Source of the DNA: Gammaproteobacteria bacterium
GTDB taxonomy: Bacteria > Pseudomonadota > Gammaproteobacteria > Pseudomonadales > Pseudohongiellaceae
DNA: 64,000 nucleotides
NCBI GenBank assembly: GCA_009844085.1
Contig: VYCF01000014.1
Coordinates: 1-64,000, forward strand
Direction of reading: 5' to 3'
The notes under the pieces are model-generated. The model ran no database searches, was not told where the DNA came from, and worked only from the letters and a program-made list of their open reading frames with translations. The position numbers and the translations under genes were made by a program. Of this stretch, positions 1 through 19,190 are shown piece after piece. Position 1 is the first letter of the stretch. Every line of letters begins with the position of its first letter.

Positions 1-42
1 CCGCTAAACCCCACGCCAACCACCGGCGACTCACGTTGTGCG
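1..42 (+). repeat. Partial copy C of the 134-nt palindromic repeat (cut by window edge)
   Basis: These 42 bases align without gaps to the last 42 bases of the full copy at 19057-19190. They share CCGCT at the start and GGCGACTCACxxTGTGC near the end. Between them lies a different arm sequence (AAACCCCACGCCAACC). In the full copies this arm pairs with an upstream arm, so the partner GGTTGGCGTGGGGTTT should lie just left of the window. The element ends 23 bases beyond the prmB stop codon. Confidence 0.7.
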
Positions 43-65
43 TAACCGACCATTTCTTATTTTGA

Positions 66-989
66 TTACGGCAAAGCACCTCTCGTCATTCCGCGCGAAG
101 CGGAGCGTAGTCGCGGAATCTCTTGGAGCTGTTCGGCGGTCAGGGCGCAGACGCCGGCGCCTCCGTGGTCGAATTCGAGCCAGAGGAAATTTGTGTTCGG
201 GAAGCGGTTTTCCAATTCTGTTGCGCTGTATCCGGTCTCAAGGATGAGCAGGCCGCCGGGATTGAGCCGCATTGCCGCCTGTTTGAGCAGGCGCTCGGCG
301 ATGTCGATGCCGTTTGTGCCGCCATCGAGTCCGAGGGCGGGCTCGTGGCTATATTCTTTCGGTAGTTGCGCCAGTTCTTCGGGGGATACATAGGGGGGAT
401 TGGCCAGGATCAGGTCGTAGCGGCCGCTCAATCCTTCGAACAGGTTCGCCTGCACTGCCGATACGCGCTCTTCCAGGTCGTGCAGACGAACGTTTTCCTG
501 CGCCAGATCGAGCGCTTCCGGGGATATGTCGGCAAGATCGACGCGGCAGGCGGGGAAGCGCAATGCGCAGGCGATGCCGATGCAGCCGCCGCCGCAGCAC
601 AGATCGAGCACGGCGGCGGATTCGCCGGTAAACCCGGGTTCAAAAAAAGGTTCGAAGCCGTTGTCGATCAATTCTGCTATCGGCGACCGGGGAACGAGAG
701 CGCGGGCGTCGCAGATTAATTCGTGTCCGGCGAACCAGGTCTTGCCGAGCAGATAGGCGGTGGGGACGCGCTGGCCGATGCGCGCCCGGACGAGTTTCTC
801 AAGCCTTTCGATTTCATCCTGTTCAAGTTTCCGGTCCTGTTGTGCGATCGACTGACGGAAATCGAGATCCAATGCGCCGAAAACCAGGAATACGGCCTCG
901 TCATGGACGTTGTCGACGCCATGACCGCAATGGACGCCGGCGCCCGCTAGGCGGTCGGCGAGTTGTTCGATACAGGACTGAAGGCGCAT
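66..989 (-). CDS. prmB: Ribosomal protein L3 glutamine N5-methyltransferase PrmB
   Basis: PrmB uses S-adenosylmethionine to methylate a glutamine side chain of ribosomal protein L3 in the cytoplasm. The 307-residue product has the N-terminal helical region of the PrmA/HemK group, an SAM-binding glycine motif (VLDLCCGGGCIGIA) and the diagnostic active-site motif NPPY. Length matches the E. coli protein (about 310). It diverges from folE with about 54 bases between starts. The normal C-terminus should end shortly after ALTAEQLQE. The last residues (IPRLRSASRGMTRGALP) and the stop are encoded by a dispersed palindromic repeat and the sequence after it, so the tail looks acquired by repeat insertion. 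PrmC is the closest alternative, but the N-terminal region fits PrmB better. Confidence 0.9.
   Translation of the reverse strand: MRLQSCIEQLADRLAGAGVHCGHGVDNVHDEAVFLVFGALDLDFRQSIAQQDRKLEQDEIERLEKLVRARIGQRVPTAYLLGKTWFAGHELICDARALVPRSPIAELIDNGFEPFFEPGFTGESAAVLDLCCGGGCIGIACALRFPACRVDLADISPEALDLAQENVRLHDLEERVSAVQANLFEGLSGRYDLILANPPYVSPEELAQLPKEYSHEPALGLDGGTNGIDIAERLLKQAAMRLNPGGLLILETGYSATELENRFPNTNFLWLEFDHGGAGVCALTAEQLQEIPRLRSASRGMTRGALP
84..122. repeat. 39-nt palindromic repeat R2, copy 1
   Basis: The element begins CGTCATTCCGCG and ends CGCGGAATCTC. ATTCCGCG and CGCGGAAT form a perfect 8-bp stem. It matches 34 of 39 positions of the reverse complement of 52582-52620. It lies inside the 3' end of prmB and encodes part of its C-terminal tail. 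Similar CGTCATTC...GAATCTC palindromes are common intergenic repeats in many bacteria, from general knowledge. Confidence 0.75.
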
Positions 990-4148: not shown

Positions 4149-4172
4149 CGTCATCCTGCGCGCAGAATGACG
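4149..4172. repeat. Short R2-like palindrome
   Basis: CGTCATCCTGCG followed by CGCAGAATGACG is a near-perfect 24-nt palindrome with the same outer bases as the 39-nt repeat R2 but without its central loop. It sits in the gpsA upstream region, 12 bases from the larger repeat A. Confidence 0.55.
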
Positions 4173-4184
4173 ACACATCGGGTC

Positions 4185-4318
4185 TGCACAATGCGAGTCG
4201 CCGTCGGCTGGCTCCGGGTTCAGCGGGCGTCCTCGACATGGATGTCGAGGCCGAAGCGTACAGGGATGTATTCACAGCGTCCGCTGCACCCGGAGCCAGC
4301 CGGCGGCGACGGATCGAA
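4185..4318 (-). repeat. 134-nt palindromic repeat, full copy A
   Basis: Read on the minus strand, it aligns without gaps to 19057-19190 (105 of 134 positions identical by hand). Conserved parts are the outer stem GTCGCCG/CGGCGAC and a core with two small CATCC-loop hairpins. The variable arm CGGCTGGCTCCGGGT pairs perfectly over 15 bp with ACCCGGAGCCAGCCG. The element begins 17 bases after the nuoN stop codon, so it would form a long hairpin at the 3' end of the nuo transcript. Confidence 0.85.
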
Positions 4319-19056: not shown

Positions 19057-19190
19057 TTCGATCCGTCGCCGCCGGGTCAGGGCGAGTGCAGCGGACGCCT
19101 TAAATACATCCTTGTAGGCTTCGGGCTCGGCATCCCTGCCTCGCACGCCCGCTGCACTCGCCCTGACCCGACGGCGACTCACAGTGTGCA
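19057..19190 (+). repeat. 134-nt palindromic repeat, full copy B
   Basis: This is the reference copy. GTCGCCG (outer stem) is followed by the 18-base arm CGGGTCAGGGCGAGTGCA and GCGGACG. The 3' half answers with CGCCCGC, TGCACTCGCCCTGACCCG and CGGCGAC. The stem is about 32 bp with two mismatches. The loop holds TACATCCTTGTA and GGCATCCCTGCC. It begins 26 bases past the DUF2149 gene stop and lies upstream of the nuo promoter. Confidence 0.85.

What the first reader, a model, noticed from the sequence alone, without database searches (positions are those of the whole stretch)
4185..4318. 134-nt palindromic repeat family with compensatory arm changes
Copies at 4185-4318 and 19057-19190 align gaplessly over 134 bases (105 identical by hand). 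The differences cluster in two paired arms that remain perfectly complementary (15 bp in one, 18 bp in the other), and a small inner CATCC-loop hairpin covaries too. The 42-nt partial copy at 1-42 has a third arm sequence. This pattern implies selection for RNA or DNA hairpin structure rather than sequence. All three lie about 17-26 bases after a stop codon.
Basis: seen in the sequence. Interest (0 to 1): 0.72.

Follow-up and report, generated by a model that had tools for sequence, protein, structure and literature searches.

The report
Widespread intergenic CsrA-type hairpin repeat
The window holds copies of a roughly 150-base hairpin repeat, present at least 57 times in this genome and found across Gammaproteobacteria, whose tip carries two loops shaped like binding sites for the RNA regulator CsrA, and whose two long arms change in matched pairs mainly because one arm appears to be copied into the other.

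Summary
The repeat is real. The copies at 4185-4318 (+) and 19057-19190 (-) match at 105/134 positions, but on opposite strands. A covariance model finds 57 full copies in the genome, and the partial copy at 1-42 is completed by an overlapping contig. It belongs to a Gammaproteobacteria-wide superfamily that includes Yersinia YPAL/RU-2 (Rfam Ysr224) and the Rfam TwoAYGGAY RNA (same clan as CsrB).

Anatomy: arms of about 25-34 bp with arbitrary sequence, topped by two small hairpins 23-24 nt apart. Their loops match the CsrA/RsmA site CANGGANG, and mainly the two N positions vary.

At 35 sites shared by two Marinobacter genomes, arm pairs changed together (115 double, 28 one-sided) at about the flank rate and with the flank transition:transversion ratio. 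That points to arm-to-arm copying more than slow compensatory selection. The fixed loop bases are conserved in resident copies. G-U but not A-C pairs are tolerated, on the GGA strand only.

GGA-strand orientation relative to neighbouring genes is random, so a simple sense 3'-UTR role is not supported. CsrA binding and sequestration is the best inferred function, untested. Known kind, new member; the evolutionary mode and the YPAL-TwoAYGGAY-CsrA link appear unreported in the library searched.

The parts
1..49 (-). partial copy (5' arm end of the element on the GGA strand), cut by the contig start; full copy lies at the end of contig C74 (G000:C74:340470-340623)
   Evidence: 55-base exact overlap of C74 end with window start; full copy in L012
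4179..4332 (+). full repeat element, GGA strand = +
   Evidence: covariance model R1, 167.9 bits, E 8.9e-52; blastn family
4197..4230 (+). left arm of the long stem
   Evidence: pairs with 4277-4310; columns 24-57 of alignment A1
4277..4310 (+). right arm of the long stem
   Evidence: columns 104-137 of A1
4231..4250 (+). inner hairpin 1, loop CATGGATG at 4237-4244 (GGA 4240-4242)
   Evidence: covarying stem, invariant loop
4259..4270 (+). inner hairpin 2, UACAGGGAUGUA, loop CAGGGATG at 4261-4268 (GGA 4264-4266); matches CsrA SELEX consensus RUACARGGAUGU
   Evidence: consensus quoted in PMC7652899
19043..19196 (-). full repeat element, GGA strand = -
   Evidence: model R1, 164.7 bits, E 9.6e-51
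19145..19178 (-). left arm (GGA strand)
   Evidence: gapless mapping to the 4185 copy; alignment A1
19065..19098 (-). right arm (GGA strand)
   Evidence: as above
19125..19144 (-). inner hairpin 1, loop CAGGGATG (GGA complement at 19133-19135)
19105..19116 (-). inner hairpin 2, UACAAGGAUGUA (GGA complement at 19109-19111)

Best explanation
This is a resident, once-mobile intergenic repeat of the TwoAYGGAY/YPAL superfamily. One strand (the GGA strand) folds into a long stem of free sequence carrying two short hairpins with CsrA/RsmA-type loops (CANGGANG), 23-24 nt apart. Shown: the family, its fold, constraint on the loop bases, one-strand G-U tolerance, and paired arm change with a neutral spectrum. 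Inferred: when the GGA strand is transcribed, one CsrA/RsmA dimer bridges the two loops, so the many copies together act as dispersed CsrA landing or sequestration sites, and the long stem protects the RNA end. Inferred: the stem is kept perfect largely by intramolecular copying of one arm into the other during replication (quasipalindrome correction), with selection mainly on the tip and on pairing of the GGA strand.
For: 57 full copies in the genome. Rfam TwoAYGGAY hits the elements on the GGA strand; one own copy scores 43.8 against a cut-off of 43, and the two Marinobacter genomes give 43 and 35 matches. TwoAYGGAY and E. coli CsrB share clan CL00106. Hairpin 2 matches the CsrA SELEX consensus RUACARGGAUGU and mainly its N positions vary. 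Hairpin 1, not part of the search pattern, keeps CANGGANG or CAGGANG in 89 of 113 copies from many genera. In resident Marinobacter orthologues the N positions changed 27/132 times and the fixed positions 12/396. GGA-GGA spacing is 23-24 nt in nearly all, inside the 10-63 nt CsrA bridging range. csrA is present in the genome and in all 22 good-quality element-bearing genomes. Arm copying.
Against: Orientation of the GGA strand to neighbouring genes is random (own 15 sense, 11 antisense; others 36 and 46), and both loop conservation and G-U bias are as strong in antisense copies. The RNA strand that should bind CsrA is therefore not regularly part of the neighbours' mRNA. csrA presence does not separate element-bearing genomes significantly (22/22 vs 124/140 good-quality). 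No binding or expression data exist here. The curated Ysr224 RNA is the opposite strand.
Confidence: 0.45

Rival explanations
1. Mobile hairpin (MITE- or REPIN-like) recognised as folded single-stranded DNA of the GGA strand by an unknown recombinase; the loops are its recognition marks and the host gains nothing.
For: Insertion-like distribution without gene-orientation bias; strand-specific G-U tolerance in all contexts; inverted doublets almost always in one polarity, 25 (-,+) against 1 (+,-); in this genus outer ends are shared by copies; Yersinia YPAL is reported mobile with target duplications.
Against: No Y1/RAYT transposase in the genome. 37 of 39 examined sites are shared by two Marinobacter species, so copies are old, yet the loops are still conserved in place. 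Loops match the CsrA site specifically.
Confidence: 0.27
2. 3'-end element of neighbouring transcripts: the long stem blocks exonucleases or read-through in either orientation, as reported for YPAL-bearing mRNAs; the loops are secondary.
For: Ends of many copies abut stop codons; YPAL elements are described as cotranscribed and possibly affecting RNA stability; very stable hairpins.
Against: 13 own copies lie between divergent genes; G-U tolerance is on the GGA strand even where the neighbours transcribe the other strand; does not explain CANGGANG conservation; no T-run follows the stem.
Confidence: 0.17
3. Palindrome kept only by mutational arm copying, with no function.
For: Double changes at neutral rate and neutral transition:transversion ratio; deletion scars of the hairpin in the same genome.
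Against: Core diverges at 0.074 against 0.196 in flanks; loop bases fixed while N positions vary; G-U 18 against A-C 1.
Confidence: 0.06

Closest known systems
TwoAYGGAY RNA (Rfam RF01731, clan CL00106; listed in PMC2864571)
   Same: Long variable basal stem, two terminal hairpins with A-N-GGA-N loops, Gammaproteobacteria, same strand; whole-length model matches, one own copy over the cut-off
   Different: Most own copies score below the cut-off; first loop position is often G or A, not Y; here it is a dispersed high-copy repeat with shared outer ends, and the arms are shorter
YPAL / RU-2 of Yersinia (Rfam RF02770 Ysr224)
   Same: Core ...GCGCCAAGGATGGCGC..CTCGAGCCTACATGGATGTATTTACGGCGTC is the same design; intergenic, multi-copy, near stop codons
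   Different: 168 bp with other arms and ends; own copies hit Ysr224 only weakly (22.9-31.9 bits, cut-off 70); Rfam models the opposite strand
CsrB/RsmY-type CsrA-sequestering sRNAs
   Same: Repeated GGA hairpin loops; CsrB is in the same Rfam clan
   Different: Single genes with own promoters and many sites; here two sites per unit, dozens of units, no conserved promoter
REP/BIME/REPIN elements with RAYT transposases
   Same: Extragenic palindromes, many copies, inverted doublets of fixed polarity
   Different: Length about 150 not 20-40 bp; no Y1 transposase found; arms are not conserved between copies of older families
ERIC
   Same: Intergenic hairpin element of similar length
   Different: No Rfam or sequence match seen; core unlike

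Membership tests
TwoAYGGAY RNA (RF01731) | model score at or above 43 bits | tested here: inconclusive
   One own copy 43.8, one G207 copy 43.5, one G217 copy 44.3; all other element copies below, but dozens of them match at E<0.01
TwoAYGGAY RNA (RF01731) | two terminal hairpins with AYGGAY loops on a common stem | tested here: met
   ANGGAN in both loops of nearly all copies; N is not always Y
YPAL / Ysr224 (RF02770) | model score at or above 70 bits | tested here: not met
   22.9-31.9 bits for own copies; Yersinia and Pectobacterium copies pass
YPAL / Ysr224 (RF02770) | shared core sequence | tested here: met
   RU-2 sequence in PMC2759123 Table 1b contains the same core
YPAL / Ysr224 (RF02770) | target-site duplication, recent mobility | tested here: inconclusive
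   Two presence/absence differences between G217 and G218, neither with clean ends
CsrA/RsmA-binding RNA | GGA in hairpin loops fitting RUACARGGAUGU / CANGGANG | tested here: met
   consensus
CsrA/RsmA-binding RNA | csrA in the genome | tested here: met
   G000:C36:7291-7446
CsrA/RsmA-binding RNA | GGA strand transcribed | tested here: inconclusive
   orientation to genes random; no expression data
CsrA/RsmA-binding RNA | direct binding | not testable with these tools
   needs gel shift or CLIP
REP/RAYT | RAYT (Y1 transposase) in the genome | tested here: not met
   PF01797 absent, control genomes positive
Rho-independent terminator | short G+C-rich stem followed directly by a T-run | tested here: not met
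   sequence after the stem is GGATCGAAGCCAC, no T-run

The most novel reading that the evidence does not exclude
Two linked claims that the data do not exclude. First, dozens of intergenic copies per genome, in both orientations, are individually maintained CsrA-type sites, implying that the GGA strand acts independently of neighbouring transcription (through antisense RNA or as folded single-stranded DNA). Second, perfect structural covariation can be generated mainly by DNA arm-to-arm copying, so strong covariation alone is not proof of RNA-structure selection.
Probability: 0.35. Interest if true: 0.75.

Novelty: new member of a known kind. Interest (0 to 1): 0.55.

Why it matters
It unites three separately catalogued things (the Yersinia YPAL repeats, the Ysr224 RNA and the TwoAYGGAY RNA motif) into one class-wide repeat family with dozens of copies per genome in the genomes examined closely, and gives a concrete, testable ligand (CsrA/RsmA). 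It is also a warning for covariation tests: in these palindromes, base pairs co-change at about the neutral rate and with the neutral mutation spectrum, which mimics selection for RNA structure.

Tried and rejected
Sense 3'-UTR CsrA tether: rejected as the general role because orientation is random and antisense copies are equally conserved. RAYT-driven REP: no Y1 transposase in the genome. csrA co-occurrence: 26/29 element-bearing vs 133/156 others, not informative. De novo arms at each insertion (unrelated arms between copies of one genome): not needed, since orthologous sites show arms changing in place. Cytosine deamination of an exposed strand as the cause of the G-U excess: A>G (5) vs T>C (0) also favours G-U, so not deamination of C alone. 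Weak Rfam microRNA matches (mir-345 and others) are generic long hairpins. Clean empty sites for target duplication: two candidates, both with ragged ends. The gpsA-nuoN site could not be compared because the two genes lie on different contigs in G202. Replication-strand bias was only eyeballed in G207 and looked random.

Full report
OBSERVATION. The two window copies match at 105 of 134 positions once one is reverse-complemented: the copy at 4185-4318 has its GGA strand on +, the copy at 19057-19190 on -. blastn finds 40 scored copies in the 3.43 Mb draft genome, and a covariance model built from 31 copies finds 57 full-length copies above 95 bits.

ANATOMY. On the GGA strand the order is: outer end TGCACNNNGTGAGTCGCC, left arm, CGGGCGT, hairpin 1, CCGAAG, hairpin 2, TTNACNGCGTCCG, right arm, outer end GGCGACGGATCGAAGCCAC. 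The long stem has 34 pairs; 22 of the 43 pairs in the whole structure are doubly changed somewhere, and 99.2% of cells are paired, against 89% in shuffles. Within the tip, hairpin 1 reads G(A/G)CA-N-GGAUG(U/C)C (some copies lack the N) and hairpin 2 UACA-N-GGA-N-GUA; within the loops only the N columns vary. Eight or more short derivatives keep both outer ends but have lost the hairpin, and three copies carry a 73-nt insertion in hairpin 2.

DISTRIBUTION. In a class-wide sample 29 of 185 genomes match; in a phylum-wide sample all 15 matching genomes are in the same class. A 27-base core pattern is found in many named genera, among them Marinobacter, Methylomonas, Stenotrophomonas, Shewanella, Rheinheimera, Pectobacterium and Yersinia. 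Between copies the arms are unrelated, usually 20-33 bp and nearly perfect, while the core stays the same. A 71-copy alignment gives 40 of 43 pairs covarying and a score of 0.924, against 0.177 (sd 0.008) shuffled and at most 0.136 for slid partners.

WHAT IT IS. The Yersinia YPAL/RU-2 repeat contains the same core, and Rfam Ysr224 (RF02770) is that repeat on the opposite strand. On the GGA strand, Rfam TwoAYGGAY (RF01731) matches the elements: one own copy at 43.8 bits (cut-off 43), with 43 and 35 matches in two Marinobacter genomes, many of them coinciding with listed element positions. TwoAYGGAY shares Rfam clan CL00106 with E. coli CsrB. I therefore file the window repeat as a member of a TwoAYGGAY/YPAL superfamily, with the caveat that most copies fall below the curated score.

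LOOPS AND CsrA. The CsrA SELEX consensus is RUACARGGAUGU with GGA in a hairpin loop, and a CsrA dimer bridges two sites 10-63 nt apart, best above 18 (PMC7652899; also PMC3791407). Hairpin 2 is that sequence. Hairpin 1, which was not part of the search pattern, has CANGGANG or CAGGANG in 89 of 113 copies from many genera. The two GGA triplets are 23-24 nt apart in nearly all copies. The genome has one csrA. No paper in the library mentions YPAL and CsrA together.

IN-PLACE EVOLUTION. Genomes G217 and G218 are Marinobacter (L240, L244). Of 39 examined element sites, 37 are occupied in both. In 35 aligned resident copies, 115 arm pairs show a double Watson-Crick change, 18 a one-sided change to G-U, 1 to A-C and 9 to other mismatches. 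Arm divergence is 0.165 per site, flank 0.196, core 0.074; double changes are 53 transitions and 57 transversions, flanks 452 and 428. The result holds in low-divergence and gap-free subsets. Compensatory selection through G-U intermediates should be slower than neutral and rich in transitions; copying of one arm into the other predicts a neutral per-site rate and a neutral spectrum. I infer that arm copying produces most of the covariation. The tip is different: N positions changed 27 times in 132, fixed loop positions 12 in 396.

STRAND. Non-Watson-Crick pairs on the GGA strand are 98 G-U against 4 A-C in own copies and 249 against 70 in other genomes. On the opposite strand these would be A-C. 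With the five innermost pairs left out, the bias persists where both neighbours are transcribed from the opposite strand (own 11:1, others 51:14), and loop bases are unchanged in such resident copies. The GGA strand therefore matters as a folded single strand, but not because it is regularly part of the neighbours' mRNA. Orientation to genes is random (own 15 sense, 11 antisense, 13 divergent, 10 convergent). This is the main unexplained fact and the main weakness of the CsrA-RNA reading.

VERDICT. Identity: strong. One-strand fold with constrained CsrA-type loops: strong. Arm copying: well supported in Marinobacter, assumed for this genome, where only two intact orthologous pairs could be compared. 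CsrA binding and sequestration: plausible, untested. The alternative is a mobile element read as single-stranded DNA; fixed-polarity doublets (25 against 1) fit that picture.

Noticed in passing
window 85-121, 4149-4175, 52608 onwards; also beside copies L020, L066, L092: A second, unrelated dispersed repeat of the type GTCATTCYGCGCGAAGCG...GCGCAGAATGAC, often next to the hairpin element.
   Followed up: no
L088, L092, L096 (own genome), L180 (G202): Variant with about 73 nt inserted in hairpin 2, shared by two species, itself containing small hairpins; it removes the second GGA loop from its usual place.
   Followed up: partly
G207, G215-G218, L230, L241, L243, L245, L250, L261 and others: Inverted doublets about 125-270 nt apart (core to core) are almost always (-,+), 25 against 1 (+,-): on either strand the CATCC version comes first and the GGA version second.
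   Followed up: partly
L065, L066, L068, L070, L073, L074, L075, L076, L091: Deletion scars in the own genome: both outer ends kept, hairpin reduced to a few base pairs; at one site the sister species still has the full element (L130 against L091).
   Followed up: partly
L310 (viral contig IMGVR_UViG_2724679354_000001, 6178-6284) and L309: A full YPAL-type element and a partial core on contigs classed as viral; a possible vehicle between hosts.
   Followed up: no
L202 (3157-3700) and L257 (2179-2513): Tandem same-strand arrays of three or four copies, 150-180 nt apart, in an uncultured Saccharophagus genome.
   Followed up: no
window 1-55: The window begins at a contig edge; contig C74 ends with the same 55 bases, so the repeat probably broke the assembly and C74 joins the window here.
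   Followed up: yes
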